From: Lacisediminihabitans profunda
Lineage (GTDB): Bacteria > Actinomycetota > Actinomycetes > Actinomycetales > Microbacteriaceae
DNA: 64,000 bases
Reading direction: 5' to 3'
Assembly: GCF_008040105.1 (NCBI RefSeq)
Contig: NZ_VRMG01000007.1
Coordinates: forward strand, 62,001-126,000
Both the position numbers and the translations under genes were made by a program. Shown here piece after piece: positions 8,851-50,518 of this stretch. Within the stretch, counting starts at the first letter, position 1, and each line of letters begins with the position of its first letter. The notes under the pieces were generated by a model. The model saw only the letters and a program-made list of their open reading frames with translations. It was not told the origin of the DNA and did no database searches.

Positions 8851-8929
8851 GAAAACGCAGGAGAATCGGCCGGTGGCGCGCTCTCACCGGCCGGAAAGAG
8901 GGCAATGGCGACAATTGTCCTGCGTTTTC
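8851..8929. repeat. 79-bp palindromic intergenic element E1
   Basis: The ends GAAAACGCAGGA (8851-8862) and TCCTGCGTTTTC (8918-8929) are perfect 12-bp inverted repeats, extendable by AAT after one mismatch. Inside, CGGCCGGTG (8867-8875) and CACCGGCCG (8885-8893) form a second 9-bp hairpin. The element starts 18 bp beyond the stop codon of the gene ending at 8947. It has the same size and nested architecture as elements E2-E6 but its own repeat sequence. No target-site duplication is evident. Confidence 0.8.
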
Positions 8930-8946
8930 AGTCTGGGCGGACGTGC

Positions 8947-9456
8947 TCAGTCGCGTTCCTCGCGGTCACGGTCGTCGCGGTCCTCCCACGGCCAGCGCGG
9001 GGTTCGGCTGGCCCCGCCGCTCTGCCGGTAGGACATGAGGATGAGATAGAGCAGCGCGACGAGCGCCGCCAGCAGGCCGACGGCCGCCGCGAACGGGCCG
9101 ATCGCGTTCGCGGCAAGGAACAGGATGCCGCGCAGCGGCCGACCCGACCCGAGCGCGTAGATGATGGCACCGGACAGGAGAAAGGCGAGGTAGACCACCG
9201 CGCCGATCACCATCGCCCGGGCGACGCCGATCCCCCGCCGCCGGGGACTCGTGGCGGCCGCGACGAGTTGCGCGAAGAGCGCCGCCGTCGCGACCACGAA
9301 CATGATGGGCGCCACGAGCGGGCCGGCATCCGTCTCGGTGAGCACCTCGCGGTCGGCGAAGAGACTGATCAGGCCGCTCGCGGCGATCGCGAGCGCCGCG
9401 AACAGCACGCTCGCGAAGATCGCGACGATGCTCGCGTACCGACGGTCTACTGCCAT
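8947..9456 (-). CDS. Hypothetical four-helix membrane protein
   Basis: I do not recognise this 169-residue protein. It has four hydrophobic helices at about residues 8-31, 48-68, 80-101 and 117-140, separated by short basic loops, and a strongly charged C-terminal tail rich in Asp, Arg and Glu (RWPWEDRDDRDREERD). It starts 9 nt after the preceding gene's stop, so the two are probably co-transcribed. They follow the pilus genes in the same direction, but nothing links them to pili functionally. Confidence 0.75.
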   Translation of the reverse strand: MAVDRRYASIVAIFASVLFAALAIAASGLISLFADREVLTETDAGPLVAPIMFVVATAALFAQLVAAATSPRRRGIGVARAMVIGAVVYLAFLLSGAIIYALGSGRPLRGILFLAANAIGPFAAAVGLLAALVALLYLILMSYRQSGGASRTPRWPWEDRDDRDREERD

Positions 9457-9465
9457 GCCAGTGGT

Positions 9466-10293
9466 CTAGACGTAGTCGCGCGTGCCATTCGCTGCGTCGT
9501 ACTCCGCGCGTCGCTCGGCCGACTCGCGCTCGAAGGTCGCACGCGACTCGACGTTGCGCACCTTCACGCGGCGTCCGCGGGCGCTGATGCCCGCTCCCGC
9601 CCAGAGCGTGACCTCGCGAGCGAGCAGCGCCGCGGCGATCACGAGCGGGTTGGTCAGTGCCTGGCCGAAGAGGCGGGTCGCACCGGACGGCGTCTCCAGC
9701 ACGATTCCGCCCACCAACAGGCCGGTGCCGACCGTGCCGAAGTAGACGAGGAGCCCCACGAAGAGGCTGCCCAGGATGTAGGCCCACCAGTTGGCGCGGT
9801 TGGCGAGGAGCGCCAGGATGATGAACCCGAGCAGGAAAAACAGCGCGGGCACGTAGAACTCGATCGCGCCGAGGAAGTTGAACGACGACACACCGGTGCG
9901 CGCGGTCTCGATGAGCGCGACGATGAGCGCGTACAGCGCGGCGAAAATGATGGTGGACAGCAGCCCGATGAGCACGCCGAAGCCGCGGTTGCCCTTCTTG
10001 CGCGGCTCGACCGGGGCGGTCACGTAGATGGTCTGCGCCGGCGGCGTCCCGACGACCGTGGTCGGCTCTGGGGAGACCTCTGTGACGGGCTCCGCGGCGA
10101 CGGGCTCGGCGAGAACCTCCGCGGGCACCTCGCTCACGTGGCTCGTGGCGCGCACGGGCTCCACGAGCGGCTCGGGCTGCGGGTCGATCGCGTCTTCCTC
10201 CACGACATCCTCTTCCGGAACGACGATTTCGTCGTTCGGTGCAGCGACGTGCCGGTTTTCAACGCCCTCGGGCGCCGGTGTCTCGTTGCTCAT
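9466..10293 (-). CDS. Hypothetical membrane protein with long acidic Pro/Glu N-terminus
   Basis: The 275-residue protein has a low-complexity acidic N-terminal region (about residues 1-90, rich in E, P and V) predicted to be cytoplasmic and disordered. Basic residues EPRKKGNRG precede four hydrophobic helices between roughly 105 and 225. The C-terminal tail is charged. No family is recognised. It lies 64 nt downstream of pilO and 9 nt upstream of another membrane-protein gene. Membership of the pilus operon is possible but unproven. Confidence 0.75.
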   Translation of the reverse strand: MSNETPAPEGVENRHVAAPNDEIVVPEEDVVEEDAIDPQPEPLVEPVRATSHVSEVPAEVLAEPVAAEPVTEVSPEPTTVVGTPPAQTIYVTAPVEPRKKGNRGFGVLIGLLSTIIFAALYALIVALIETARTGVSSFNFLGAIEFYVPALFFLLGFIILALLANRANWWAYILGSLFVGLLVYFGTVGTGLLVGGIVLETPSGATRLFGQALTNPLVIAAALLAREVTLWAGAGISARGRRVKVRNVESRATFERESAERRAEYDAANGTRDYV

Positions 10294-10357
10294 GGTGTCG
10301 CTCCTTACGGGCCCCTAGGCCATCCCTAACGGTCAGGTCAGCCTAGCAATGCCCGTG

Positions 10358-11065
10358 CTATTTGGTGCCCGCCGTGCTGGTTCCCTGCGCGAGAAGCACG
10401 TAGACGAGTCCCTTAACGGTCGCTTCCACCCCCTGAGCGGTTTTGGTCGACGGAGGCGCAGTCGTCAGGTTCGTGACGAGGAAGAGCCGCTGGCCGGTCT
10501 GCAGGCCTTTGACGAAGTTGAGTACGTTCGAATACGGCCCGCTGATCGCCACATCGATCGGAATCGCGATGAAATTCGCCGCGGTGATCTTCGGGTTCGT
10601 GACGAGCGCCGGCGCCTCGGGAGCCACCGGACCGACGACCACGGGGGCAGCGCTCGCCGAGGGAGACGGCGTCGGGCTCGGCGTCGCTCCGGGAGCCGGA
10701 GCCACGACTGTCACGGGCGGCGTGTACGCCTTCGCGTCGGACACGGTAATCGTCTTCACCGCCACTCCATATTGGCTCGACAGCGAGTCGATTTCGGTCA
10801 CAAACGTCGACAGTTGCGCGCTCGACGGAACCGACTTTCGCAGGGAAGTCACCTTCTTCGTCAGTTCGCCCATTCCCTTGAAGTCGCTCTTCAGCGCGAC
10901 GAGCTGGCGCTCGCTCGCGGCGTTCTGCGACTTCACTGTCGTGAGGTTTTGACTCGCGGCGCTCGCGGCGTTCAGCTGGGGTTGGATTCCGAGAAACCAG
11001 CCCGCCACCACGACGACGAGCATCACGGCGACCGTTCCGATGATCCAGAGTCTGTTCCTGTCCAC
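10358..11065 (-). CDS. pilO: Type IV pilus inner-membrane alignment protein PilO-like
   Basis: PilO pairs with PilN to form the membrane alignment subcomplex that connects the PilM ring to the pilus. The 235-residue product has one N-terminal helix (about 8-27), then a coiled-coil region and a C-terminal ferredoxin-like domain. A Pro/Ser/Ala-rich linker (PSPTPSPSASA) interrupts the periplasmic-side domain, which is unusual. The GTG start at 11065 lies 1 nt after the pilN stop; the longer frame to 11182 overlaps pilN without support. It is the last recognisable pil gene. Confidence 0.85.
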   Translation of the reverse strand: MDRNRLWIIGTVAVMLVVVVAGWFLGIQPQLNAASAASQNLTTVKSQNAASERQLVALKSDFKGMGELTKKVTSLRKSVPSSAQLSTFVTEIDSLSSQYGVAVKTITVSDAKAYTPPVTVVAPAPGATPSPTPSPSASAAPVVVGPVAPEAPALVTNPKITAANFIAIPIDVAISGPYSNVLNFVKGLQTGQRLFLVTNLTTAPPSTKTAQGVEATVKGLVYVLLAQGTSTAGTK

Positions 11066-11066
11066 G

Positions 11067-11732
11067 TCACTTCCCCTTCGCTGCAAAGCGCTTTGTGAAG
11101 GCGGCCTCGCTGATGTGCATCGTGATGTTGACGGTGTAGGCCCCCGCGTCGCCCTCGCGAGTGACGTTCCCGGGGGAGGCATCCGTGTACCCCGGAAGCG
11201 TGGTGAGCGAGTCCAACCAGGCGGGGACCTCGGGCAGGGTCTCGCTTGTGGCGACGAAACTCAGCGTCGCGACGCGAGAACCCTGCAGTGGAACCGCCGA
11301 CTGAGTGAAGGACTGCAGCGGTGTACCCGCCTCGATCGTCACCGACGTCAGCGTCACGTTCGCCGGTAGGGTCGCCTGCACCTGGTTGAGATACGCCTGC
11401 CAGTCGATCTCGGTCGAGGTACCCACCTCCTGGGCCGCCTGCACCATTCCCACCTCATCCTGCACGGCTCGCACCTTGATGTACTTGCTCTGTTGCGCCA
11501 GAAGGGTCGACGTCGTCTGTTGTTCCGAGGCGAGGCTTAAATTCACCTGGAAGGCTTGGAGGGCGGCAAGACCCGTGCCCAAGATCACCAGAACCACCAG
11601 CACCGCGGTGGCCGCCCAGAGGCGGTGACGCGTCGCGAGGGCCTTGCGTTGCTGCCGGAGTTCCGGCGGCAACAGGTCTGCCCGGGCCTCCCCGCCGACT
11701 TCGAGCGCCTGGGACTTCGCCGTGCCGCTCAT
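11067..11732 (-). CDS. pilN: Type IV pilus assembly protein PilN-like
   Basis: PilN has a short cytoplasmic N-terminus that docks on PilM, one transmembrane helix and an extracytoplasmic domain that dimerises with PilO. The 221-residue product shows a basic cytoplasmic stretch, a helix at about 42-66 and a following heptad-like region, consistent with this family. Its ATG overlaps the pilM stop by 4 nt and its stop is 1 nt from the pilO GTG, as expected for subunits made together. Confidence 0.87.
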   Translation of the reverse strand: MSGTAKSQALEVGGEARADLLPPELRQQRKALATRHRLWAATAVLVVLVILGTGLAALQAFQVNLSLASEQQTTSTLLAQQSKYIKVRAVQDEVGMVQAAQEVGTSTEIDWQAYLNQVQATLPANVTLTSVTIEAGTPLQSFTQSAVPLQGSRVATLSFVATSETLPEVPAWLDSLTTLPGYTDASPGNVTREGDAGAYTVNITMHISEAAFTKRFAAKGK

Positions 11733-12775
11733 GCCATACCTCCCAGCGCGAGTCCGAGCGCGACGGTCAGCGAGGCGCCACTCTGATGCAATTCGTCCTT
11801 GTTGACAGCGCGGCCCACCGCGATCGTGGCGAACGGGTCGGCCTCGGCGACCGGAAGCTTCGTCATTTCGGCCAGCGCTTGCGGGAACCCGACGAGTTGC
11901 GCGCCCCCGCCAGTGAGCAGGATCGTGCTGATCGGTTCCTGGGGACGAAGATTCATGAAGTAGTTGATCGTGTTTCTGAGGCTTCCCAGCAGTTCGCCGG
12001 TCACCTCGTAGATGATCTCGACCGCGCTGCGCTCCTGTACTGTCGCGACCTGGGCAGCGAGGCCGAGTCTCCGTTTCAGGTCTTCGGCCTCGGCAGCATC
12101 GATCTCCAGCCTGACACTGAGCGCCTGCGTCAGGTCGTTCCCGCCTGCCGGAATGATGCGTACGAACTGGGGCACGCCGTCGACGGCGATCACGACACTG
12201 GCCGCGTTGGCGCCCACGTCGATCAACACGATTGTGCCCTTCAACTTCGGGCGCGTGATGAGTACACGGCTCAGCGCGAAGGGAATGAGGTCGACATCCA
12301 GCGGGTTGAGGCCGGCCTGCTGCACGGCCCTGACGTTTCCGAGCACGGCATCTTTGATGGCGGCGATAAGCAGACCGTGCGCGACGGGACCGCTCTCGGT
12401 CATCGACTCTGAGATGGGGTAGAAGTCGAGCAGCGCGTCGGCAACGGGCACGGGGAGCATGTCCTGCACCTGGAACGGAAGGGCCTCTCGAATGTGCGCG
12501 AGCGAGGCCTTGGGAACCGTGAGGTCACGCGCGAGCACGCGCTGGTTGCCCATGCCGAGCACCACGTTCTTACTCTTGAACCCGCCGGTCGACCAGATCC
12601 GCCTGATGACGGCGCCGACGGTGTGCGGTTCGATCACCTCGCCGCGGCTCACGGCCCCCTCTGGCAAAGGGATCTCGAGGAAACGGACGAGGGTCGGCTT
12701 CGACTTCGACGTGCTCACCTCGACGGCACGCACCGACGTGCTTCCGATGTCCACCCCAACTACGCTGCTTGCCAT
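11729..12775 (-). CDS. pilM: Type IV pilus assembly ATPase-fold protein PilM
   Basis: PilM is an actin-like (FtsA-fold) cytoplasmic protein that binds PilN and links it to the motor. The 348-residue product opens with VVGVDIGSTSVRAVEV, the first phosphate loop of this fold, and contains IVLIDVGANAASVVIAVDG and LLTGGGAQLVGF, the second phosphate and adenosine motifs. The start at 12775 (MASSVVG) is fixed by this motif. It lies 34 nt after pilD and overlaps pilN by 4 nt. Confidence 0.93.
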   Translation of the reverse strand: MASSVVGVDIGSTSVRAVEVSTSKSKPTLVRFLEIPLPEGAVSRGEVIEPHTVGAVIRRIWSTGGFKSKNVVLGMGNQRVLARDLTVPKASLAHIREALPFQVQDMLPVPVADALLDFYPISESMTESGPVAHGLLIAAIKDAVLGNVRAVQQAGLNPLDVDLIPFALSRVLITRPKLKGTIVLIDVGANAASVVIAVDGVPQFVRIIPAGGNDLTQALSVRLEIDAAEAEDLKRRLGLAAQVATVQERSAVEIIYEVTGELLGSLRNTINYFMNLRPQEPISTILLTGGGAQLVGFPQALAEMTKLPVAEADPFATIAVGRAVNKDELHQSGASLTVALGLALGGMA

Positions 12776-12809
12776 TTTTGCCCCATGTTCCCCCGCCCGC
12801 TGCTGCGGG

Positions 12810-13643
12810 CTACGCCAATCCGAATAATGCCAGATAACCGAGCGATATCGGCGCACCTACGAGCGCGCCGAGCCAAGCTCCGGCGAGCATCCACGGCCCG
12901 AACGGAATCCCGGTCTTGCGATTCGCTCGACGGAAGATCACGAGGCCCAGTGCGAACACACCCCCGATGATGAATGCGCCGAACGCGCCGACGACCAGCT
13001 GGCCCCAGCCGAGGTAGCCGAGGAAGAGCCCGAGCACCCCGGCAAGCTTGACATCGCCGAGCCCCATTCCGCCCGGGTAGGCGAACGCCATGGCCGCGTA
13101 GGCCAAGAAGAGGGCCGCCGACCCGATGGCGGCGCGAATGAGGGCACCGACGTCGGACCCCAGAACGGCCGCGGCACCCAGCAAGACGACGCCGACCAGG
13201 AAGCTCGGCAGCACGATGCGATTGGGCAGGGTGTGGGTGTCGATATCGATGAGGGCGAGCGCCACGCTCACTGCCGCGAGGTAGAGAAAGGCGGCGAACG
13301 CGAGGCCGGCGGCGACGGCGGCCGCCGTGCCCACGGACCCGCTGGCAGCGACGTTCGGCCAGAACCAGAGCGCGACGACGGTGAAGAACACCGCAGTGCC
13401 CGCCTCGACGAGCGGGTAACGCGCCGAAATGGGCGATTGACAGTCGCGGCACTTGCCGCGCAGCACCAGCCACGAGATGACGGGCATGTTGTCGTAGCCA
13501 CGGATGGGCGCGGAGCAGTGCGGGCACGCGCTCGGCGGCGACACGATGGAGAGCCTGAGCGGAACTCGATACGCCACCACGTTGAGGAAGGACCCGATGA
13601 GTGCGCCGAAGACGCCGACGAAAACTGCCACGCTAACCTGCAA
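12810..13643 (-). CDS. pilD: Prepilin peptidase / N-methyltransferase
   Basis: This polytopic membrane aspartyl protease cleaves type IV prepilins and N-methylates the new end. The 277-residue product carries an N-terminal zinc-type tetracysteine (C40, C43, C65, C68), associated with the methylase domain, and the two catalytic aspartates in LIDIDTHTLPN (D133/D135) and GMGLGDVKL (D197). It should process all six prepilin-like proteins encoded just upstream. It overlaps the preceding minor-pilin gene by 11 nt. Confidence 0.95.
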   Translation of the reverse strand: MQVSVAVFVGVFGALIGSFLNVVAYRVPLRLSIVSPPSACPHCSAPIRGYDNMPVISWLVLRGKCRDCQSPISARYPLVEAGTAVFFTVVALWFWPNVAASGSVGTAAAVAAGLAFAAFLYLAAVSVALALIDIDTHTLPNRIVLPSFLVGVVLLGAAAVLGSDVGALIRAAIGSAALFLAYAAMAFAYPGGMGLGDVKLAGVLGLFLGYLGWGQLVVGAFGAFIIGGVFALGLVIFRRANRKTGIPFGPWMLAGAWLGALVGAPISLGYLALFGLA

Positions 13644-15258: not shown

Positions 15259-15842
15259 GGTGAACTCACCGTCGGTGTTTGAGGGGTGTAGGTGGTGGTC
15301 GTGATCTTGACGTAGGGGTGGGAATCGGCCGCAACATTGAAGGTGAGGTCTACGCGCGAGCCGGCAGGGGCAGTGAAGACATTCCCGGTGACGGCGATGG
15401 GGCTTACCCCGACGCCGAGAAGCGTCCAGACTCCCTGCGGCCCGCCGCTCGGCAGGGTGATCACCGAGGCGGGCGTCGTTCGCTTCGTATACACGGCGCC
15501 GCCGTTTGCGGGGGTGTAATACCATGCCTGGCAGGACGAGGCAGTGGAAGCCGGGTCGCTTCCAATGACGCGGGCGATTAGAAGTTGCGTGCCAGTCGTC
15601 GTGTTGCTGATCACGGTGACGGCGGACGCATTGCGGACGCCCGACTGTACCGACCTGACGATCTGTTGCGCCACCGTTGCGGCGCTCGTCACGCTCTTCA
15701 CCGTCTGCTGGGTCGACAGCCCGCTCACGAGCACTCCGCCGGCGATAAGGAGCACGACGAGGGAGAGCAGCATTGAAATGATCAGCTCGACAAGCGTGAA
15801 CCCGGCGTCCCCGCCTCCACTGGCACCCCGCTTCTGCGTCAT
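15249..15842 (-). CDS. PilW-type minor prepilin
   Basis: The 197-residue product has a 14-residue leader ending in GG-DAG, then the class III prepilin sequence FTLVELIISMLLSLVVLLIA with Glu at +5, followed by a globular domain with a C-terminal Cys. PilD should cleave after the Gly. The start at 15842 is chosen because its ATG overlaps the preceding gene by 4 nt and the extended frame lacks a leader. It probably belongs to a priming complex with the adjacent PilV- and PilX-like proteins. Confidence 0.85.
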   Translation of the reverse strand: MTQKRGASGGGDAGFTLVELIISMLLSLVVLLIAGGVLVSGLSTQQTVKSVTSAATVAQQIVRSVQSGVRNASAVTVISNTTTGTQLLIARVIGSDPASTASSCQAWYYTPANGGAVYTKRTTPASVITLPSGGPQGVWTLLGVGVSPIAVTGNVFTAPAGSRVDLTFNVAADSHPYVKITTTTYTPQTPTVSSPCF

Positions 15843-16282: not shown

Positions 16283-16331
16283 GGCTCCCCTTGCTCAAGC
16301 TCGAGTGGCGAAGATTTGCCTGTCGCCGTGG

Positions 16332-16371: not shown

Positions 16372-16381
16372 ACGGTGACTA

Positions 16382-16958: not shown

Positions 16959-16968
16959 GACGTGGTTA

Positions 16969-22764: not shown

Positions 22765-22885
22765 TCGCGGCGGGAATACCGCATCGCGGAGGGAGTCCCG
22801 CCCCCCTCCGCCACGCAGTTTCCCCGCCGCGCGGCGCCGCAACTCCCTCCGCGAGGCTGCGGCCGCGAGGAAACGCGACGGGGAG
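22765..22885. repeat. GC-rich intergenic repeat module A
   Basis: This block shares several 15-25 bp words with two other intergenic regions (30885-31045 and 57706-57960). Shared words are GCGGCGGGRATACCGCATCGC (21 positions, stated here as GCGGCGGGR then ATACCGCATCGC), GCAGTTTCCCCGCC, and AACTCCCTCCGCGAG. The words occur in either orientation. It lies between the rpoC terminator and pilB. The repeat has no coding potential that I can support. Confidence 0.7.
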
Positions 22886-30621: not shown

Positions 30622-31078
30622 CGGCGATTTCGGGCCGGGAGCGCCCCGGAGTCACGCGCGTAACCGGCCCGGTAGCTGTCGTCGCGCCCGCTCGTTGGCT
30701 CCGCCTGCCCGGTGGCTCGCCGCGGTCGCGCGGTGGCGCGGTGGCGCGGCGGGGCGGTGGCGCGGCGGGGCGGAGCGGCGCGGCGCGGCGCGAACCGGGC
30801 GTCTGCGGCCAATCGGGGCCGGCGTGCTGGCCCCGGTTGTCCGCGTTGGCCCCGGTTGAGCGCGGGGCGGGGCGCGGCATGCTGCCGCCCTCGCGGAGGG
30901 AGTTGTGTCCCTCGATGGCGGGGAAACTGCACGGCGGAGGGAGGCGTTACCCCCGCCGCGATGCGGTATCCCCGCCGCCAGGGTGAGACGCGAGTCGGGC
31001 CGGGGGTGCAACTCCCGCCGCGACGGCGCAACCCCCGCCGCGAGCGAGCACCGACGAGTTCCGTTCGCGTGGGCGGGC
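30622..31078. repeat. Low-complexity GC tract and repeat module B
   Basis: Positions about 30710-30800 are simple GCG/GGCGCGGT repeats. Positions about 30885-31045 contain the same words as modules A and C: CTCGCGGAGGGAGTTG, GGCGGGGAAACTGC, and CGATGCGGTATCCCCGCCGC. Long open frames occur on both strands but consist of Arg/Pro/Ala-rich low-complexity sequence with no start or family support. The region lies downstream of the orphan plus-strand promoter and beyond the 3' end of the hemoglobin gene. Confidence 0.7.
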
Positions 31079-38573: not shown

Positions 38574-38780
38574 TATGCTGGAGTTACCTGTGAAACCATG
38601 ACGGTTTCCCTGCGTCGTTGAACGCTCCCTCTTCTCGTCCGCCTCGGCGGACTCGTAGATACTTCTCCGGCGAACGGATGTGGCCATCGCCACCTTCGCC
38701 ATTCACACCGATTCCCCGTGTCAATCGACACGACGGAATCCCGGTGTGCACCGATGCCCGAAAGGCACCACACCATCATC
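38574..38780 (+). promoter_or_regulatory. Extended -10 promoter and structured leader of the RNA helicase gene
   Basis: TGC-TATGCT (38571-38579) is an extended -10. A leader of about 195 nt follows with three hairpins: GAAACC/GGTTTC (38592-38608), GTCCGCC/GGCGGAC (38637-38652), and a long composite stem at 38704-38748 built from CACACCG/CGGTGTG, ATTCC/GGAAT and CGTGTC/GACACG. The last ends about 30 nt before the ATG. Long structured leaders are typical of cold-shock RNA helicase genes; regulation here is inferred. Confidence 0.55.
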
Positions 38781-40298
38781 ATGTCTGAAACCATCACCTC
38801 CTTCGGCGCGCTCGGCGTGCCGCAGCCGCTCGTCGCGAAGCTCGCGGCGGCCGGAATCGAGTCCCCGTTCCCCATCCAGGTCGACACCCTCCCCGACACG
38901 CTCGCCGGTCGCGACGTGCTCGGCCGCGGCAAGACCGGCTCGGGCAAGACCCTCGCCTTCGCCCTGCCGATGATCGCCCGCCTCGGCGGAAAGCTCGCCG
39001 GCGGCCAGCGCCGCCCGGGCCGTCCGCTCGGCCTCATCCTGGCGCCGACCCGCGAACTCGCCACCCAGATCACCACGGCCATGGAGCCGCTCGCCTCGGC
39101 GTACGGCCTCAAGCTCACCACGATCTTCGGCGGCGTCTCGCAGCAGCGCCAGGTCGCGGCGCTCAAGGGTGGCATCGACATCGTCGTGGCCTGCCCCGGT
39201 CGCCTGGAAGACCTCATGAAGCAGGGGTTCGTGTCGCTCGACGCGATCGAGATCACCGTGCTCGACGAGGCGGACCACATGGCCGACCTCGGCTTCCTGC
39301 CGGTCGTCACGCGCATCATGGACAAGACCCCGAACAGCGGGCAGCGGATGCTGTTCAGCGCCACGCTGGACAACGGCGTCGACCGCCTCGTGAAGAAGTA
39401 CCTCCACAACGAGGTGCTGCACTCCGTGGACGAGGCCACCTCCCACGTCTCCGCGATGACCCATCACGTGTTCGAGGTCGACTCGGTGGAGGCCAAGCGC
39501 CTGCTCATCGAGAAGCTCGCCTCGGGTACCGGCCGCCGCATCCTCTTCATGCGCACCAAGCACCACGCCAAGAAGCTGGCCAAGCAGCTGACCGATGCCG
39601 GCATCCCGGCCGTCGACCTGCACGGCAACCTCTCGCAGGTGCAGCGCGACCGCAACCTCGCCGCCTTCTCCGCCGGCACCTCTCGCGTGCTCGTGGCCAC
39701 GGATGTCGCCGCGCGCGGCGTGCACGTGGACGACATCGAGCTCGTGATCCACGTCGACCCGCCGGCCGAGCACAAGGCGTACCTGCACCGCTCCGGCCGC
39801 ACCGCGCGCGCCGGCAAGGAGGGCGAGGTCGTCACGATCGTGCTGCCCACCCAGCGCAAGGACACCGCCGCCCTGCTTCGCAAGGCCGAGATCACCGTGA
39901 CCCCGCAGCACGTCACCGCCGATTCGGCGGCAGTCGCCGCCCTCGTGGGCGACGTGGCGGCCTGGGTCAAGCCCGCCCCGCGTGCTGCCGTGCAGCCGCA
40001 GGGCCAGCCGCGCCAGTCGCAGGGTGGACGCTCGCAGGGCCAGGGCCGCTCGCAGGGCGCGAACGCCCAGCGCAAGCGTGCCAACCGGGACGGATCATCG
40101 GCAGCCCCGCGCTCCGACCGCGCCACGGGCGGCTCGCGCAACTTCTACAGCACCGGCAGCGGTGACGCGCCGTCCAGCGCGCCCCGCTCCGGCGGCAGCG
40201 GAGCGGGCGCTGGCCGCGCCGGTTCCGGCGGCGGACTCGTCGGGATGTCGCAGGGCGGTGGCGGCGGACGTCGTCGCAGCGGTGGCGGCGGCCGCTAG
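38781..40298 (+). CDS. DEAD-box ATP-dependent RNA helicase
   Basis: The 505-residue protein unwinds structured RNA. It has a Q motif (GIESPFPIQ), motif I GKTGSGKT (Gly-Lys instead of the usual Ala-x), DEAD in VLDEADHMADLGF, SAT in FSATLDNG, and motif VI HRSGRTARAG. About 120 C-terminal residues are low-complexity Gly/Gln/Ser/Arg with RGG-like patches, ending RRRSGGGGR, for RNA binding. The start is taken as ATG 38781; an in-frame ATG at 38754 is an alternative. It is followed by a terminator. Confidence 0.93.
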   Translation: MSETITSFGALGVPQPLVAKLAAAGIESPFPIQVDTLPDTLAGRDVLGRGKTGSGKTLAFALPMIARLGGKLAGGQRRPGRPLGLILAPTRELATQITTAMEPLASAYGLKLTTIFGGVSQQRQVAALKGGIDIVVACPGRLEDLMKQGFVSLDAIEITVLDEADHMADLGFLPVVTRIMDKTPNSGQRMLFSATLDNGVDRLVKKYLHNEVLHSVDEATSHVSAMTHHVFEVDSVEAKRLLIEKLASGTGRRILFMRTKHHAKKLAKQLTDAGIPAVDLHGNLSQVQRDRNLAAFSAGTSRVLVATDVAARGVHVDDIELVIHVDPPAEHKAYLHRSGRTARAGKEGEVVTIVLPTQRKDTAALLRKAEITVTPQHVTADSAAVAALVGDVAAWVKPAPRAAVQPQGQPRQSQGGRSQGQGRSQGANAQRKRANRDGSSAAPRSDRATGGSRNFYSTGSGDAPSSAPRSGGSGAGAGRAGSGGGLVGMSQGGGGGRRRSGGGGR

Positions 40299-40315
40299 CC
40301 AGCAGCACTCGAAAG

Positions 40316-40347
40316 AAGGGCCCTCGCACTCGTGCGGGGGCCCTTTT
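40316..40347 (+). terminator. Rho-independent terminator T1 after the RNA helicase
   Basis: GGGCCCTCGCAC pairs with GTGCGGGGGCCC (one G-T pair) around a 2-nt loop, followed by TTTT, 20 nt past the stop codon. This is a textbook plus-strand terminator. A diverged copy of the same segment occurs at 40750. Confidence 0.9.
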
Positions 40348-40359
40348 CGTACCCCCGCC

Positions 40360-40448
40360 GCGTGCATAACTCCGGCAATACTCCGGCCAGGGGTCGAATA
40401 CCCGCCGTTCTGGCGTCCGGAGCGGCAGATTGCCGGAGTTATGCACGC
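40360..40448. repeat. 89-bp palindromic intergenic element E2
   Basis: GCGTGCATAACTCCGGCAAT (40360-40379) and its exact reverse complement (40429-40448) form a perfect 20-bp terminal inverted repeat. Inside, CTCCGG/CCGGAG, CCAG/CTGG and GGGT/ACCC can nest into further stems. The arms match E3 and E4 except for CGGCA versus TGCA at the inner end. It begins 12 bp after terminator T1. Confidence 0.88.
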
Positions 40449-40571: not shown

Positions 40572-40655
40572 TGCATAACTCCTGCATGTCGAGGCCGAGA
40601 CGCCCGAATCGGGGCAGTCTCGGGACAGAGGTGGGCGATTTGCAGGAGTTATGCA
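40572..40655. repeat. 84-bp palindromic intergenic element E3
   Basis: TGCATAACTCCTGCA (40572-40586) and TGCAGGAGTTATGCA (40641-40655) are perfect 15-bp inverted repeats. The interior nests CCGAGAC/GTCTCGG and CCCG-AAT-CGGG. The interior is about 90 percent identical to E4, so E3 and E4 are clear copies of one another. Confidence 0.88.
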
Positions 40656-40749
40656 CGCTGGCACGGGGTGCCGGCGCGGCGGGCACGGCCGGCGCGGCGC
40701 GGCGCGGCGGGCACGGCGCGGCGCGAAGACGCTAACCAGCAGCACTAAG

Positions 40750-40784
40750 AAAAGGGCCATCGCACTCGTGCGGGCGGCCCTTTT
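40750..40784 (+). terminator. Terminator copy T2
   Basis: AAAAGGGCC...GGCCCTTTT with an inner CGCAC/GTGCG stem repeats T1 with its flanks: both have AGCAGCACT before and TTTTCGTACCCCCGC after. No gene ends here, so it is a duplicated segment and not the terminator of a gene. Confidence 0.8.
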
Positions 40785-40828
40785 CGTACCCCCGCTCGGG
40801 CCTGGGGGCTTTTCTGCGCCATGCCCGT

Positions 40829-40913
40829 GTGCATAACTCCTGCACGTCGACGCCGAGACGCCCGAATCGGGCAGGCTCGGGACAGAGGTGGGCGATTTGC
40901 AGGAGTTATGCAC
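40829..40913. repeat. 85-bp palindromic intergenic element E4
   Basis: GTGCATAACTCCTGCA (40829-40844) and TGCAGGAGTTATGCAC (40898-40913) are perfect 16-bp inverted repeats enclosing the same nested-hairpin interior as E3. It lies about 45 bp after terminator copy T2, mirroring the T1-E2 arrangement. Confidence 0.88.
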
Positions 40914-40977
40914 GCAGGCACGCAGGCACACAGGCACACAGGCACGCAGGCACGGAGGCACGGAGGCACGGAGGGCA
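40914..40977. repeat. 8-bp tandem repeat (GCAGGCAC type), about 8 copies
   Basis: The octamer GCAGGCAC and variants (ACAGGCAC, GGAGGCAC) repeat about eight times directly from the right end of E4. The first unit overlaps the sequence just outside the E4 arm. It ends about 75 bp before the stop of the NUDIX-like gene. No coding frame is supported. Confidence 0.8.
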
Positions 40978-41050
40978 CGGTGGATGGAGGGGCGGCGGGG
41001 CGCTGGGCGGCGGCGCCGAGTGGCCCGCGCTAGTACGCCGATGACTCGCG

Positions 41051-41590
41051 CTAGTAGAGGGCGCCGAGCGACGCTAGTGCCGCCCGCACGAGGGAGCCGC
41101 GGCCGCCCTCCATCTCGGCGGAGACGGTGTCCGACGCGGCCTCGGAGGGCGTCATCCAGGTGAGTTCGAGGGCGTCCTGGCGCGGGTCGCAGGTGCCGGT
41201 CACCGGCACCACGTAGGCGAGGGAGACGGCGTGCTGGCGGTAGTCGGTGAACTGGGAGCCGGGGAACGGAAAGTACTCCGCGACCGAGAACGGCACCGGG
41301 CTCGCCGGCAGCAGGGGGAAGGCCATCGGGCCGAGATCCTTCTCGAGGTGCCGGAACAACGCGGTGCGCAGCCTCTCTCCATACATCACGCGTCCGGAGA
41401 CGAGGGTGCGGGTGATCGCACCGGCCGAATTGGCGCGAAGCAGGATGCCGACCTCGGTGACCTGGCCGACACCATCCACGCGCACCGGCACGGCCTCCAC
41501 GTAGAGCAGGGGCAGGCGCCGCCGGGTCTCGGCGAGCTCCTCATCGGACAACCAGCCGGAGTTCGGATCGGGCGTGCCTACGGAGCTCAT
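41051..41590 (-). CDS. DUF4916 / NUDIX-like protein
   Basis: The 179-residue protein resembles the actinobacterial DUF4916 group of NUDIX-related proteins: SGWLSDEELAETRRRLPLLY at the N-terminus and VEVGILLR-type strand TEVGILLRAN with SGRVMYGERLRTALFRHLEK in the place of the NUDIX helix. The canonical GX5EX7REUXEEXGU box is not intact, so hydrolase activity is uncertain. It is isolated; its 3' end faces the repeat cluster. Confidence 0.75.
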   Translation of the reverse strand: MSSVGTPDPNSGWLSDEELAETRRRLPLLYVEAVPVRVDGVGQVTEVGILLRANSAGAITRTLVSGRVMYGERLRTALFRHLEKDLGPMAFPLLPASPVPFSVAEYFPFPGSQFTDYRQHAVSLAYVVPVTGTCDPRQDALELTWMTPSEAASDTVSAEMEGGRGSLVRAALASLGALY

Positions 41591-46507: not shown

Positions 46508-47276
46508 GGGCGACACCGTCTACCGCACGGCGAAGAACCTCGACGCCGCACTGCGCGGAGACACGCTCACCCGGTGCGAGATCCGGGTGCCCGCGTTCGC
46601 GACGATGGATCTCACCGGCGACACCGTGGAGGGCGTGGCCAGCCGTGGCAAGCACCTGCTGATCCGCGTCGGCGAGCACAGCATCCACAGCCACCTCAAG
46701 ATGGAGGGGTCCTGGCACCTCTACCGGCACGGCTCGAAGTGGCGTCGCCCGGCGTGGCAGGCGCGCGCGATCCTCGGCACCGACGACTGGGTCGCCGTCG
46801 GCTTCGAGTTCGGCGTGCTCGACGTCGTGGCGCGGGACGACGAGTCGAGCGTTGTCGGGTACCTCGGACCGGATCTGCTCGGGCCGGATTGGGATCAGGG
46901 CGAGGCCCTGCTTCGCCTCACCGCCGACCCGGGCCGCGCGGTCGGTCTTGCGCTGCTCGACCAGCGGGTGATGGCCGGCCTGGGCAATGTCTACCGCAAC
47001 GAGCTCTGTTTTCTGCGCGGCATCCTGCCCACCCGTCCGGTCGGTGGCGTCGACCAGCCGGAGCGACTCGTGGAGCTCGCCCATCGGCTCATCGACGCCA
47101 ACAAGGACCGGGTGCAACGCACGACGACCGGCTCGCTGCGTGGAGAGACCGCCTGGGTCTACCGCCGGGAGGGCAGGCCGTGTCTGCGCTGCGGAACCCG
47201 CATCGAACACGGTGAACTGGGCGACACGGCGCTGGAGCTACGGGACGCCTATTGGTGTCCCCGGTGCCAAAGCTGA
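46500..47276 (+). CDS. Endonuclease VIII-type DNA glycosylase (Nei2 group)
   Basis: Fpg/Nei enzymes excise oxidised bases and nick the abasic site. The 258-residue product starts at GTG 46500 and reads MPEGDTVYRTA: Pro2 is the catalytic Schiff-base nucleophile and Glu3 its partner. The H2TH region (MAGLGNVYRNELCF) and a C-terminal zinc finger (CLRCGTRIEHG...CPRCQ) are intact. It overlaps lhr by 8 nt, so both repair proteins are co-translated. Confidence 0.93.
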   Translation: MPEGDTVYRTAKNLDAALRGDTLTRCEIRVPAFATMDLTGDTVEGVASRGKHLLIRVGEHSIHSHLKMEGSWHLYRHGSKWRRPAWQARAILGTDDWVAVGFEFGVLDVVARDDESSVVGYLGPDLLGPDWDQGEALLRLTADPGRAVGLALLDQRVMAGLGNVYRNELCFLRGILPTRPVGGVDQPERLVELAHRLIDANKDRVQRTTTGSLRGETAWVYRREGRPCLRCGTRIEHGELGDTALELRDAYWCPRCQS

Positions 47277-47280
47277 TATT

Positions 47281-47313
47281 CCCTCCGCCGGAGGGCTATG
47301 GTGTGGATCACAC
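47281..47313. promoter_or_regulatory. Two small inverted repeats between nei2 and membrane-protein gene
   Basis: CCCTCC-GCC-GGAGGG (47281-47295) lies 4 nt after the nei2 stop and could be a weak terminator. GTGTG-GAT-CACAC (47301-47313) follows, 21 nt before the next GTG start, and could be an operator. Neither matches a site I recognise. Confidence 0.35.
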
Positions 47314-47334
47314 AAAGTCTTGGGGGAAATTTCT

Positions 47335-47889
47335 GTGACCACGCCTGCCCTGCCCGAATCGACACAACCGGCCGTGCTGGAGAACGTCGTGCGGGGCACC
47401 ATCTTCGCCCTGCTCGCCGTGCCCGTCGGGGTGATCCTCTGGGTCGTGATCTGGAACCTCGGTGTCGTCTCGGCGATCGTCGCCTTCGTCGTCGCGGCCG
47501 CGGCCGCCTGGCTCTACCGCAAGGGTTCCGGCGGACGGGTCAGCTTCACCGGCGCCCTCGTCATCTCCGGGGTCGTTCTCGCGACGCTCCTGCTGAGCTT
47601 CTACTTCGGCCTCGTCTCCGACTGGGTTCGGGCGGTGGTCGAACAGACCCGCCTGAACCCGATCCAGGCTCTCACGGACCCCGGCTTCTGGCCTTCCTTC
47701 AACTCAGTGTTCGGCGAACTGCTCAAGTCCGAGCTGCCGAGCCTCGGGCTCGCGCTCCTCTTCGGACTGCTCGGCGCATTCACGGTGCTGCGCCGCGCGT
47801 TCGCGTCGGCCCGTGCGCAGTCGACTCCGGTGCCCCTCGAACCGCTCTTCCCCCGCCCCGAACCGCCGAGGGCCGATCCCGAAGGCTAG
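47335..47889 (+). CDS. Hypothetical four-helix membrane protein
   Basis: The 184-residue protein starts at GTG 47335, preceded by GGGGG, and has four hydrophobic helices at about residues 20-40, 43-60, 68-92 and 140-158, then a Pro-rich C-terminal tail (PLEPLFPRPEPPRADPEG). No family is recognised. Its stop overlaps the stop of the convergent gene by 4 nt. Confidence 0.75.
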   Translation: MTTPALPESTQPAVLENVVRGTIFALLAVPVGVILWVVIWNLGVVSAIVAFVVAAAAAWLYRKGSGGRVSFTGALVISGVVLATLLLSFYFGLVSDWVRAVVEQTRLNPIQALTDPGFWPSFNSVFGELLKSELPSLGLALLFGLLGAFTVLRRAFASARAQSTPVPLEPLFPRPEPPRADPEG

Positions 47890-48353
47890 CGTCCGCCGCG
47901 CTGCGACCGCGCCGCAAAGAGGAACAGCGTGCCCGTCGCCGTGGCGAGACCGAGGACGATGAGCATCGGCGCAGCCATGGTGTACGCCTGCAGCAGGTAG
48001 TAGTCGGAGCTGCCCCCGCCGCCGGACGTGTTGAGGCTGTCCAGGCGGTCGCTGATGAAGCGCAGCAGGTAGAGACCGGTACCGATGAAGACCGCGCTGA
48101 GCGCCCAGAGGGCGACGACAAACACATTCGGCCGACGAGAGGTGGTCTCGGGCTCTGCGGCGGCGGCCGACTCCTCCTCGACGGCGATCGGCTGCCCGGG
48201 CTCGACGAGCGGCGCGGTCCGAACGCTCCGGTCGACGTTCGACTCCACGGGAGGCCTCTGCTCGCGCCCGTGCAGCGTCGGGTCGTAGCCGGGCTGGAAC
48301 GCCGGGTCGAATCGCGGATCGAAGCCCGGCTCATCCCTCGACGCGCCGGTCAT
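47886..48353 (-). CDS. Hypothetical two-helix membrane protein
   Basis: The 155-residue protein has an acidic N-terminal half with FDPRFDPAFQPGYDPTLHG, then helices at about 77-98 and 123-148 separated by a Gly/Ser-rich loop NTSGGGGSSDYY. It starts at ATG 48353, which overlaps the upstream gene's stop by 4 nt. It is probably co-translated with the 75-residue protein; function unknown. Confidence 0.7.
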   Translation of the reverse strand: MTGASRDEPGFDPRFDPAFQPGYDPTLHGREQRPPVESNVDRSVRTAPLVEPGQPIAVEEESAAAAEPETTSRRPNVFVVALWALSAVFIGTGLYLLRFISDRLDSLNTSGGGGSSDYYLLQAYTMAAPMLIVLGLATATGTLFLFAARSQRGGR

Positions 48354-48577
48354 GGGCTCTCCGCCGCGACGTCGCTCGAGGTCTCGAACCGGATGCGAAG
48401 CGACGTGGTCCAGGACTGGAGCCACGCGAAGAGGAAGTAGGCGCCGGAAACCGCGAGCGAGACCACGGCGATGATGTTCGACTCGACCGTGTAGTAGAGG
48501 TACTGGGCGAGGAGGCCGGCAAGGCCGAGGGCCGCGAAGAAGAACCGGTAGACGCCGAGGCCCTGTTGTCTGCTCAT
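48350..48577 (-). CDS. Small two-helix membrane protein (75 aa)
   Basis: The 75-residue protein (MSRQQGLGVYRFFFAALGLA start) has two hydrophobic helices at about 10-30 and 35-55 and a polar C-terminus. It overlaps the next gene by 4 nt, forming a two-gene unit divergent from the oxygenase-like gene at 48801. No family is recognised. Confidence 0.7.
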   Translation of the reverse strand: MSRQQGLGVYRFFFAALGLAGLLAQYLYYTVESNIIAVVSLAVSGAYFLFAWLQSWTTSLRIRFETSSDVAAESP

Positions 48578-48639
48578 GGGCTGATCCTATTGTCCGCACG
48601 AGACTTTGTCAGGCCGCCACGGGACCTTCGACCCGGCGC

Positions 48640-48671
48640 CCTCGAGCGGCGCAGCCTAGGGTCGCTCGAGG
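48640..48671. promoter_or_regulatory. Stem-loop in the divergent region at 48.6 kb
   Basis: CCTCGAGCG (48640-48648) and CGCTCGAGG (48663-48671) form a perfect 9-bp stem with a 14-nt loop. It lies in the 223-bp gap between two divergent genes, so it is not a terminator of either. Its role is unknown. Confidence 0.4.
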
Positions 48672-48739
48672 TGCCCAGCGCGCCGAATTCGAAACCCCGA
48701 CCGCCTCGGAATCCCCACGAGAATCGCGGAACCGTGCTG

Positions 48740-48758
48740 TTAGGGTTGCCTAAGTTGG
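48740..48758 (+). promoter_or_regulatory. Possible DtxR/IdeR iron box
   Basis: TTAGG-GTTG-CCTAA (48740-48753) is an inverted repeat. Over 19 positions the site agrees with the IdeR consensus TTAGGTTAGGCTAACCTAA at about 12. It lies 42-61 nt before the start of an Fe(II)-oxygenase-like gene, which makes iron-dependent control plausible. A second feature is the direct repeat GCTAGTT just downstream. Confidence 0.4.
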
Positions 48759-48800
48759 GCTAGTTAAAACGTGCTAGTTCTCTTACCTGAAAGGGCTCAC

Positions 48801-49577
48801 ATGAGCTACGTCAAATCCGCCCTGCTCGAAGAGAAGGGCTTCGTGATCCTGGACCGCTACGACCAGGGCGCCGACCCCCAGGAGTGGCTCGACCTCGAGT
48901 ACGTGGAGTGGAAGTCATCCGGCGACACGCGGTTCGCCCCTCTCGCCAGCGCCTTCGGCGAGATCGAGGTGAACGGATTCTGGAACCACACCCCGCCCCG
49001 CACCGACAAGGACGGCGTGTGGATCGACTCCCAGGTCGCCAAGGCGCCGCACCTCGTGCAGCGAGCCATGGAGCCCGGCGCGAACGTGGGCCGATGCCGC
49101 GTGATCGAGCTGCAGCCCAACGACTATGCCAACACTCTCTACAACCTGCACCAGGACGACAACAACCGGCTCAACCCGGACGGCAGCGGCTGGATCGTGC
49201 GCGGCTTCTTCAACCTCACGGATGACGCCGAGTCGTTCCTGACGCTGCGCGAAGACCGCTTCAACCCGTCATCCGAGATCCGCATCCCGCTTCCGGCGGG
49301 CGCCCAGATCATCGTGGACACCCAACGCTTCTGGCACGCCGTCTGGCACAAGGGCCCCGCGCCCCGCTACTGCCTCATCACGTCCTGGGAATCCGGACCC
49401 GAGCTCGATGCCTACATCGAGAAGCACCACGGCACGAACCTGCACGAGAACCCGTACCTCGACCCCCAGGTGATCGCGGATGCCCAGGCCGATGTGCAGC
49501 GCCGTCTCGCCGAGCGCTCGGCCTCACTCGCGTCCCGCGGCCGGCCAGACGATCACCCGGTCGATCCCGAGGCCTAG
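48801..49577 (+). CDS. Putative 2-oxoglutarate/Fe(II)-dependent oxygenase-fold protein
   Basis: The 258-residue protein is not in a family I can name. The sequence carries HQD at residues 117-119, a downstream QRFWHAVWH (H179/H183) and PRYCLITSW with Arg189. This HxD...H...R order is that of non-heme Fe(II)/2OG oxygenases, and the surrounding GGFFNL-type strand GFFNLTDDAESFL and AGAQIIVD fit the jelly roll. ATG 48801 follows a GAAAGGG site. It is followed 3 nt later by a DedA gene. Confidence 0.65.
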   Translation: MSYVKSALLEEKGFVILDRYDQGADPQEWLDLEYVEWKSSGDTRFAPLASAFGEIEVNGFWNHTPPRTDKDGVWIDSQVAKAPHLVQRAMEPGANVGRCRVIELQPNDYANTLYNLHQDDNNRLNPDGSGWIVRGFFNLTDDAESFLTLREDRFNPSSEIRIPLPAGAQIIVDTQRFWHAVWHKGPAPRYCLITSWESGPELDAYIEKHHGTNLHENPYLDPQVIADAQADVQRRLAERSASLASRGRPDDHPVDPEA

Positions 49578-49580
49578 CCC

Positions 49581-50213
49581 ATGCCCGTTCACGCGGCCGC
49601 GCTCGACGGCCAGGTGTCGAGCTGGCTCACGACCTTCGGGCCGCTCCTCTTCTACGCCATCGTCTTCGGCCTCGTCTTCGCCGGGACCGGACTCTTCATC
49701 GGCGTGTTCATCCCGTTCGTCACCGGCGACTCGCTGCTGTTCGCCGCCGGCCTGCTCGCCGCCGGCACGGACGCCCTCAACATCTGGGTGCTCGCCATCG
49801 GCGTCGGGGTGGCCGCGTTCCTCGGCGACCAGGTCGGCTTCCTGCTCGGCCGGCACTACGGCCGCCCCTACCTCGATCGGCGCAGCGGGGCGTGGGTGCG
49901 CCGCGGCGTGGTGCGCGCGGAGAGGTTCTACACCGACCTCGGCTGGTGGGCCGTCGTGGTCGCCCGCTTCATCCCGTGGGGCCGAGTGCTCGTGCCGCCG
50001 GTCGCCGGCATCGCCCGCATGGACTACCTCAGGTTCGTCGCCGCGAACCTGGTCGGCGCGCTCGCCTGGGGTGTGCTGCTCGTGGTCACCGGGTACTTCG
50101 CGGCCAGCATCCCCGCCGTCAAGTCCGCCGCCTATGCGGTGGGCGGGTTCTTCATCCTCGCCTCGATCGTCGCGGGCGTCGTCGCGTGGAGGCGCAACCG
50201 CGCCTCGGCCTGA
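49581..50213 (+). CDS. DedA family membrane protein
   Basis: The 210-residue protein belongs to the DedA/SNARE-associated family, implicated in lipid-carrier flipping and membrane homeostasis. Visible family motifs are PFVTGDSLLFAAGLLA, GDQVGFLLGRHYGRPYLD, and VVVARFIPWGRVLVPPVAGI (re-entrant loop with the essential Arg). It begins 3 nt after the oxygenase-like gene, so the two are co-expressed. Confidence 0.92.
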   Translation: MPVHAAALDGQVSSWLTTFGPLLFYAIVFGLVFAGTGLFIGVFIPFVTGDSLLFAAGLLAAGTDALNIWVLAIGVGVAAFLGDQVGFLLGRHYGRPYLDRRSGAWVRRGVVRAERFYTDLGWWAVVVARFIPWGRVLVPPVAGIARMDYLRFVAANLVGALAWGVLLVVTGYFAASIPAVKSAAYAVGGFFILASIVAGVVAWRRNRASA

Positions 50214-50257
50214 CCGGAGCGCCGTTCCCCTCCCGCTCGCAGCAGCCGGGTACCTAA

Positions 50258-50343
50258 TTCCGAAATCCATGCATTTCTTCGGCACACTCGGCGTGTCTGT
50301 ATCGCTGAGCGGCGTGTCGGGCAGGAATGCATGGATTTCGGAA
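50258..50343. repeat. 86-bp palindromic intergenic element E5
   Basis: TTCCGAAATCCATGCATT (50258-50275) and its exact reverse complement (50326-50343) form a perfect 18-bp inverted repeat. The interior contains GCACAC/GTGTCT-type stems. It starts 45 bp after the dedA stop codon. Interior and arms are close to E6. Confidence 0.88.
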
Positions 50344-50430
50344 GGGGCGGGGGGACGGATGCCCCGGCTGAACGGCCACTTCGGAGCGGCACCTTGTCGC
50401 CCGTCACCGCCTCGGTGGGTCACGCTTCCG

Positions 50431-50518
50431 CTTCCGAAATCCATGCAATTCGTCGGCACACTCGGCGTGTCTGCATCCCCGAGCGGCGTGTCGGCAAGGA
50501 ATGCATGGATTTCGGAAG
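50431..50518. repeat. 88-bp palindromic intergenic element E6
   Basis: CTTCCGAAATCCATGCA (50431-50447) and TGCATGGATTTCGGAAG (50502-50518) are perfect 17-bp inverted repeats. The interior is roughly 88 percent identical to E5 in the same orientation. It lies in the convergent gap between dedA and the LysR-effector gene, 110 bp from the latter's stop. Confidence 0.88.

What the first reader, a model, noticed from the sequence alone, without database searches (positions are those of the whole stretch)
8851..50518. Six structured 79-89 bp palindromic elements in three families, all beyond gene 3' ends
E1 (8851-8929), E2 (40360-40448), E3 (40572-40655), E4 (40829-40913), E5 (50258-50343) and E6 (50431-50518) share one design: length 79-89 bp, terminal inverted repeats of 12-20 bp, and nested hairpins in the interior. 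The repeat sequences differ by locus (GAAAACGCAGGA; GCATAACTCC-KGCA; CCGAAATCCATGCA), so architecture is conserved while the arms are not. All lie downstream of gene stop codons and none is in a coding region. No target-site duplication or transposase is visible. Possible roles are bidirectional terminators, mRNA 3'-end stabilisers, or non-autonomous mobile hairpins.
Basis: partly seen in the sequence, partly recalled or inferred. Interest (0 to 1): 0.78.

Follow-up and report, generated by a model that had tools for sequence, protein, structure and literature searches.

The report
RAYT-less, REPIN-like paired-arm palindromes
Six palindromes in this bacterial chromosome belong to scattered families of short elements whose two ends stay the same, at spacings that differ by about one turn of DNA, while the middle drifts, which points to an unidentified protein that grips both ends.

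Summary
The six palindromes are real and beyond chance. They belong to three of at least four families in this genome: exact-arm copies A 10, B 36, C 12, D 29. Each copy has two inverted 15-17 bp arms around a variable interior; unpaired arms are rare. Within families lengths fall into classes about one helical turn apart: A 83/94, D 82/92/103, F 92/102 plus single copies at 114 and 124. At orthologous family-A sites arms are 95-97% identical while interiors and flanks are 52-76%. The arms therefore look like paired duplex protein sites kept in place, not terminators: a T-run follows in 3 of 156 copies, both strands counted. They resemble REPINs, but 0 of 32 genomes have a Y1/RAYT transposase, GTAG tags are lacking and singlets are rare. 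No target duplication or parent transposon was found. The 3'-end bias is real but partial. Most likely: RAYT-less REPIN-like elements whose arms are bridged by an unknown DNA-binding protein. The protein, the bridging and any mobility are unproven.

The parts
8849..8931 (.). E1, family C element, 83 bp; arms of the CCGAAAACGCAGGAGAT type with 2 and 3 mismatches to the 17-bp family arm
   Evidence: 12 exact 11-bp-arm copies in G000
40363..40445 (.). E2, family A element, 83 bp (perfect pairing extends to 40360-40448); arms TGCATAACTCCGGCA on both sides
40572..40655 (.). E3, family A element, 84 bp; arms TGCATAACTCCTGCA
40830..40912 (.). E4, family A element, 83 bp; 95-96% identical to E3 over the matched parts, a local duplicate
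50258..50343 (.). E5, family B element, 86 bp; arms TTCCGAAATCCATGCA
   Evidence: 36 exact-arm copies in G000
50432..50517 (.). E6, family B element, 86 bp; 91% identical to E5, a local duplicate
40316..40347 (+). intrinsic-terminator-like hairpin followed by TTTT, after the DEAD-box helicase gene and before E2; a second copy lies at 40752-40783 before E4, so these elements are not the only candidate terminators here
   Evidence: read from the sequence
38718..40298 (+). DEAD-box RNA helicase gene whose 3' end precedes E2-E4
41051..41590 (-). DUF4916/NUDIX gene convergent on E2-E4
49581..50213 (+). VTT-domain membrane protein gene whose 3' end precedes E5-E6

Best explanation
The six palindromes are copies of three lineage-specific families of dispersed, REPIN-like paired-site DNA elements found in several Microbacteriaceae. 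The working parts are the two inverted 15-17 bp arms. Shown: arms occur mostly as pairs, at family-specific spacings that differ by about one B-DNA turn, with interiors that drift in sequence while keeping length; and in family A the arms stay intact at orthologous positions in different species. Inferred: an unidentified DNA-binding protein, one protomer per arm, bridges the two arms across a bent 80-105 bp segment, which is why both arms must lie on the same face of the helix and why mainly the length of the middle matters. Also inferred: that protein, or a partner, is responsible for the spread of each family, and the arms are kept by continuing use of the paired site. The function of the bridged complex is not known.
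For: Exact-arm pairs in G000, backward-pattern control 0: A 10, B 36, C 12, D 29. A permissive search of 800 kb of G000 and 400 kb of G005 finds pairs, none in Markov-shuffled sequence. Paired arms outnumber orphans: in G000 orphans with at most 2 mismatches are A 1, B 0, C 1, D 5 against 24, 24, 27 and 37 paired arms; in the Cryobacterium-type loci A 2 against 150. Length classes: A 25 at mean 83.1 and 77 at 94.5 of 105; D 5/18/3 at 82.0, 92.3, 103.3 of 28; F 7/7/1/1 at 92.6, 102.4, 114, 124 of 17; C 35 at 82.8 and 1 at 104 of 36. The seven steps fit 10.5 best of the periods tried, rms 0.65, with 11 nearly as good at 0.75. Orthologous pairs, aligned columns only: A 45 pairs arms 97.4%, interior 76.1%, flanks 76.2%; C 9 pairs 91/75/79%; B 2 pairs 98/86/90%. 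At the locus reached through its neighbouring methyltransferase gene, 8 A elements give arms 95.4%, interior 61.8% (shuffled 51.0%), flanks 52.3%; the two copies there in Glaciihabitans are 84 bp against 94-96 bp in Cryobacterium, a one-turn difference at one locus.
Against: No cognate protein was found: no Y1/RAYT transposase in 32 genomes, and no sign that DUF222-HNH genes carry such elements (0 of 29 downstream, 1 of 29 upstream, one gene from each of 29 genomes out of 346 matches; too few to exclude the 6-8% background). No binding, looping or movement was observed. The 114, 124 and 104 bp classes are single copies, and the number of turns per step was assigned by me. A looser family-A list has one copy each at 74, 80 and 88 bp (the last two in a chlamydial and a gammaproteobacterial bin). 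Family A loci were found by exact 11-bp arms, so their arm identity is inflated; the locus is one locus, in genomes chosen for holding family A. Family C arms are less uniform: 11 of 14 G000 copies have a mismatch to the arm pair and orthologous arms are 91% identical. Family A arms co-vary and interiors fold slightly better than shuffles, which leaves room for a hairpin or cruciform role. One A copy at the methyltransferase locus has decayed arms (5 mismatches) and was left out of the average.
Confidence: 0.5

Rival explanations
1. Miniature transposons (MITEs) of a cut-and-paste IS: the arms are terminal inverted repeats used by a transposase elsewhere in the genome. Very short transposons would need ends in helical phase (recalled: Goryshin, Kil and Reznikoff 1994 on IS50), which would explain the length classes.
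For: Inverted ends with a free interior, species-specific expansions (B 36 copies in G000, 5 each in G004 and G010, 0 in the other 10 congeners), local duplicates, length classes.
Against: No clear target-site duplication: matches of 4 or more bases at offsets 0-3 in at most 2% of copies of families A-D, with only small excesses at k 2-3. No transposase between arms was seen in the sampled 1.2 Mb, and orphan arms are few. Family A arms stay 95-97% identical at orthologous sites while interiors drift, not expected of dead copies. No match to the A or C pattern in viral contigs or of one 901-base window stretch in phages and plasmids.
Confidence: 0.2
2. Host chromosome-organising or insulating sites: the arms bind a nucleoid-type protein that pinches DNA near the ends of core genes, and the sites serve the cell rather than themselves.
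For: Family A arms conserved in place; neighbours of the clusters looked at are ordinary genes such as pgm, clpC, glmU and aroB (named from the sequences by recall); convergent regions enriched; genes next to an element in Cryobacterium-type loci are more often next to one in G000, 5 of 15 against 1 of 25, p 0.02.
Against: Strong turnover between congeners: by exact arms B is in 2 and D in 3 of the 12 other species of the genus, and G006, G009, G011 and G012 have no exact A, B, C or D pair. Four or more arm sequences in one genome need several specificities. The same orthologue test against G005 gave 0 of 4 against 1 of 18.
Confidence: 0.17
3. Transcription terminators or mRNA 3'-end stabilisers acting as RNA hairpins.
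For: Strong folds on both strands; enrichment in convergent regions, not corrected for region length: G000 9 of 29 against 31 of 219, p 0.03; G005 5 of 15 against 7 of 118, p 0.005; Cryobacterium-type loci 22 of 38 against 40 of 148, p 0.0005; co-variation in family A arms; by my scan few genes have another intrinsic terminator before the element (G000 4 of 49, against 6 of 167 in elementless regions), so E2 and E4, which do, are not typical.
Against: A T-run follows in 3 of 156 copies, both strands counted; interiors of about 50-65 nt are unlike terminator loops; copies lie in divergent regions too (8 of 69 in G000); none of the tested C, B and D arm positions shows significant linkage; length classes near 10.5 bp have no RNA reason.
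Confidence: 0.08

Closest known systems
REPINs (REP doublets forming hairpins) with RAYT transposases (PMC3116915 and PMC8049555, passages seen)
   Same: Two nearly invariant inverted ~16-bp ends, diverse spacer whose length seems to matter, several families per genome, intergenic, local clusters, lineage-specific populations.
   Different: No Y1/RAYT gene in 32 genomes; no GTAG tag (1 of 156); by eye the arms have at most small self-complementarity (CTCCGGAG in D, TGCA...TGCA in A); singlets few where the paper calls REP singlets common; length classes about one helical turn apart, not mentioned in the passages seen.
Bacterial MITEs (e.g. Correia, RUP, NEMIS elements; recalled)
   Same: Short, non-coding, terminal inverted repeats, intergenic, high copy.
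   Different: No clear target-site duplication, no parental IS seen, interiors differ between copies, family A arms conserved at orthologous positions.
Intrinsic terminators
   Same: Inverted repeats, enriched at gene 3' ends.
   Different: T-run in 3 of 156, long loop, also in divergent regions, sequence-specific arms.

Membership tests
REPIN/RAYT | paired inverted ~16-bp conserved ends with a diverse spacer of set length | tested here: met
REPIN/RAYT | RAYT (Y1_Tnp, PF01797) gene in the genome | tested here: not met
   0 of 32 genomes at E 0.001, G005 (100% complete) included; several of the others are incomplete; the model rings in 5 of 14 control genomes
REPIN/RAYT | GTAG or CGTC tag at the foot of the repeat | tested here: not met
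   GTAG/CTAC within 8 nt of the arms in 1 of 156; CGTC/GACG in 22 of 156, no shuffled control was run
REPIN/RAYT | REP singlets common, as decaying remnants | tested here: not met
   orphans of at most 2 mismatches: 7 against 112 paired arms in 800 kb of G000; a Markov control alone gives 8 such D matches and none for A-C
MITE | terminal inverted repeats | tested here: met
MITE | target-site duplication | tested here: not met
   families A-D, k 2-8, offsets 0-3: at most 2% of copies match for k of 4 or more; small excesses at k 2-3, e.g. A 0.27 against 0.21 and D 0.14 against 0.05 at k 2
MITE | autonomous parent element with the same ends | tested here: inconclusive
   none seen around the orphan arms of the 1.2 Mb sampled; the rest of the genome was not read
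MITE | empty sites in close relatives | tested here: inconclusive
   the G004/G010 matches did not overlap an element; some orthologous loci lack it but are too diverged to align
Intrinsic terminator | GC stem, short loop, T-tract | tested here: not met
   T-run in 1 of 156 on the given strand and 2 of 156 on the other; interiors about 50-65 nt
Rfam families | match at gathering score | tested here: not met
   0 matches in the window

The most novel reading that the evidence does not exclude
An unrecognised class of paired-site elements in Microbacteriaceae, served by a fast-evolving DNA-bridging or transposase-like protein unrelated to RAYT. Element lengths are quantised by the DNA helix, and whole sets of sites change arm sequence between species, so that arm families replace one another at the same gene ends.
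Probability: 0.3. Interest if true: 0.82.

Novelty: new variant of a known kind. Interest (0 to 1): 0.62.

Why it matters
In the papers seen, REPINs are tied to RAYT transposases. A large REPIN-like population without a detectable RAYT, with arms in helical register and (in family A) kept at orthologous sites, would separate the paired site from that enzyme. The length classes predict a protein that bridges both ends on double-stranded DNA, which can be tested with purified DNA. Finding the protein would show whether these are selfish elements or chromosome-shaping sites near the ends of core genes.

Tried and rejected
RNA-family or tRNA-like element: Rfam 0 matches at gathering score, ARAGORN 0 genes. 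Intrinsic terminator: hardly any T-run. Base-paired interior under compensatory selection: interior complementarity in register is at most slightly above swapped halves (A 0.43 against 0.37, C 0.50 against 0.43, B and D not above); a central palindrome exceeds shuffles clearly in A only (5.57 against 4.91 of 9; C 5.18 against 4.98; B and D about equal). RAYT: not found. DUF222-HNH proteins as cognates: 0 of 29 downstream and 1 of 29 upstream, against 16 and 16 of 200 control genes in G000 and 12 and 12 of 200 in G005; no support, but a weak test. Phage or plasmid carriage: no match for two arm patterns in viral contigs and for one window stretch in phages and plasmids. Autonomous parent: the exact orphan C arm at L138 is a half element between ordinary genes. 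Family switching at homologous loci: suggestive only. At two loci searched through a gene, inverted repeats were found in 13 of 20 and 9 of 20 genomes (Markov control 0.3 and 0.2 per 460 bp), but several are of other kinds, one region (L227) was cut wrongly, and the loci were chosen because they switch. Close-relative empty-site test with G004/G010: no usable overlap. Literature: searches listed no paper that I recognised as describing such elements in Microbacteriaceae (24 returned none), and 64 none that I recognised on helical phasing of short transposons; most subscription papers are not held. Papers: PMC3116915, PMC8049555 and PMC12306157 seen as passages; PMC3733652 only in listings with the start of its abstract; Goryshin et al. 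1994 recalled, not seen.
Full report
Observation. The window holds 10 inverted pairs with arms of at least 12 bp and spans of 60-140 bp; 30 Markov-1 simulations average 1.0, maximum 3. All six fold strongly on both strands. Rfam and ARAGORN find nothing in the window.

Families. Searches of the window's own genome (G000, 4.02 Mb, 171 contigs) with gapped arm patterns, whose backward controls gave 0, find 10 exact-arm copies of family A (E2-E4), 36 of B (E5, E6), 12 of C (E1) and 29 of a fourth family D, arm GCGTTTCTCCGGAGG, whose exact core is not in the window. D came from a de novo scan of G000 stretches. In 800 kb of G000 a permissive search finds 11 A, 12 B, 14 C and 18 D pairs (the D list includes alternative registers of one element) and none in Markov-shuffled sequence. 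A fifth, GC-rich mosaic type (GGCGGGGAAAC and relatives) is also there.

Distribution. By exact arms, A is in 2 of 149 genomes searched, B in 3 of 119, C in 11 of 119, D in 4 of 89, G000 counted each time. A scan of the genome collection for A gave 61 stretches: 52 Cryobacterium, 4 Glaciihabitans, 1 Rhodoglobus, 1 Microbacterium, and 3 outside the family (Paenibacillus, a gammaproteobacterial and a chlamydial bin), which may be chance. G011 has other arms of the same build (TCCGAAATGCAGGC, 84 bp). Of 18 other genera seen through one 20-kb stretch each, 5 show an inverted pair with arms of at least 13 bp and 13 show none; G038 has an 83-bp one, G018 and G033 short ones of 56-58 bp, and those of G045 and G047 may be chance. 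In 200 kb of G012 there is one. Other arm types are F (GGCTAACTCAGGAGAT) in Cryobacterium and J (CGTTCATAACTCAG) in Glaciihabitans.

Anatomy. The two arms are far more constant than the interiors, which differ from copy to copy but keep their length. The spans fall into classes about one B-DNA turn apart: A 25 copies at mean 83.1 and 77 at 94.5, 3 of 105 elsewhere; D 82.0, 92.3, 103.3 (5, 18, 3; 2 of 28 elsewhere); F 92.6, 102.4, 114, 124 (7, 7, 1, 1; 1 of 17 elsewhere); C 82.8 and 104 (35 and 1); B 85.75 only (24). A looser A list adds single copies at 74, 80 and 88. The seven steps between classes fit 10.5 best among periods 9 to 12 tried, rms 0.65; 11 gives 0.75. The exact-pattern list for D, 27 of 34 matches shown, has 6 at 78, 18 at 87-90 and 3 at 99-100 and nothing between; it shares copies, and 78 was the shortest span that pattern could find. 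One longer F copy contains tandem 11-base units, a possible way to add a turn (L210). At one locus Glaciihabitans carries 84-bp A elements where Cryobacterium carries 94-96 bp ones. A hairpin of RNA or single-stranded DNA gives no reason for such steps; two protein sites on one face of a duplex do. This is inference from length alone.

Pairing. Orphan arms are few: with at most 2 mismatches G000 has A 1, B 0, C 1, D 5 against 24, 24, 27, 37 paired arms; G005 has 1 (C, at a stretch edge); the Cryobacterium-type loci have A 2 against 150, C 1 and D 1. Three of the D orphans are tandem extra arms of one element. Left-right co-variation is significant in A (positions 5 and 12-16, not position 1) and at none of the C, B and D positions tested. 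Interior complementarity in register is hardly above a control that pairs halves of different copies. Interiors fold somewhat better than their dinucleotide shuffles, most in B. So a hairpin component cannot be excluded, but the arms are what is kept.

Selection in place. Of 62 orthologue-like pairs, 56 are of one family: arms 97.4% identical in A against 76.1% interior and 76.2% flanks (45 pairs; pairs share species and are not independent, gaps not counted), 91/75/79% in C (9 pairs), 98/86/90% in B (2 pairs); 6 pairs of different families were left out. The A loci outside G000 and G005 had been found by exact 11-bp arms, which inflates the first figure. A locus reached through the neighbouring RNA methyltransferase gene in 18 genomes has an A element in 10 of them, one decayed, other arm types in some and none in others; one genome is cut by a contig end. 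Eight intact A elements there give arms 95.4%, interior 61.8% (shuffled 51.0%), flanks 52.3%; the decayed copy (5 mismatches) and the 84-bp Glaciihabitans copies were left out of this average.

Context. In the G000 sample 52 elements were placed, 2 overlapping predicted coding sequence by more than 40 bp; G005 16 and 1; Cryobacterium-type loci 72 and 0. They occur in 9 of 29 convergent, 23 of 150 tandem and 8 of 69 divergent intergenic regions of at least 100 bp; G005: 5 of 15, 4 of 76, 3 of 42; Cryobacterium-type loci (chosen for holding A): 22 of 38, 29 of 89, 11 of 59 (Fisher p 0.03, 0.005, 0.0005 for convergent against the rest, not corrected for region length). Genes were called with a simple codon model of my own, so edges are approximate. 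An intrinsic terminator before the element was found for 4 of 49 gene ends in G000 against 6 of 167 in elementless regions. Neighbours looked at are ordinary genes (names beyond one search are recalled). Element-adjacent orthologues are more often element-adjacent elsewhere: Cryobacterium-type against G000 5 of 15 against 1 of 25, p 0.02, with a different arm family in 4 of the 5; G005 against G000 2 of 2 against 10 of 80, p 0.02; Cryobacterium-type against G005 0 of 4 against 1 of 18.

Mechanism. I take the elements to be paired protein sites on duplex DNA, REPIN-like in build. The spacing classes, the pairing and the family A arm conservation are shown; the protein, the bridging and the spread by that protein are inferred. 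The REPIN paper describes two invariant 16-bp ends, common spacings of 71 and 110 bp, and length as a critical feature of the spacer (passages). But a Y1 transposase, which defines the RAYT system, is in 0 of 32 genomes here, with the model working in 5 of 14 controls; the GTAG tag is absent; and singlets are few. So it works like, but is not shown to be, a REPIN. A MITE reading lacks clear target duplications and a parent; a terminator reading lacks T-tracts.

Verdict. The kind is known in outline; the missing transposase, the helical length classes and the possible arm turnover at homologous gene ends make it a new variant worth a bench test.

Noticed in passing
window 22784-22854 and about 30894-31020: Further GC-rich palindromic sequence (CGGAGGGAGT / GGCGGGGAAA mosaic type) past the rpoC end and upstream of rpoB (gene names by recall), of a fifth type that forms nested and tandem arrays with about 20-21-bp steps elsewhere in the genome.
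   Followed up: partly
window 40293-40358 and 40730-40795: A gene 3' end scrap with its intrinsic terminator is repeated 437 bp downstream, so the E2-E4 cluster grew by local duplication.
   Followed up: partly
window 40910-40981: Eight-base tandem repeats (GGCACGCA-like) directly after E4.
   Followed up: no
G011 L296 18263 and L301 13586; G018 L308 19387; G033 L317 19606: A second kind of palindrome, 56-62 bp with 19-24-bp perfect arms and a short loop, in other genomes of the family.
   Followed up: no
L138 16936 (G000 C106): A half C element: one perfect arm without its mate, between a thioesterase-like gene and a response regulator.
   Followed up: partly
30 genomes: DUF222 (13E12-type) genes occur in all 30 genomes with 2-29 matches, most in Cryobacterium cryoconiti; the 29 looked at show no such palindromes downstream.
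   Followed up: partly
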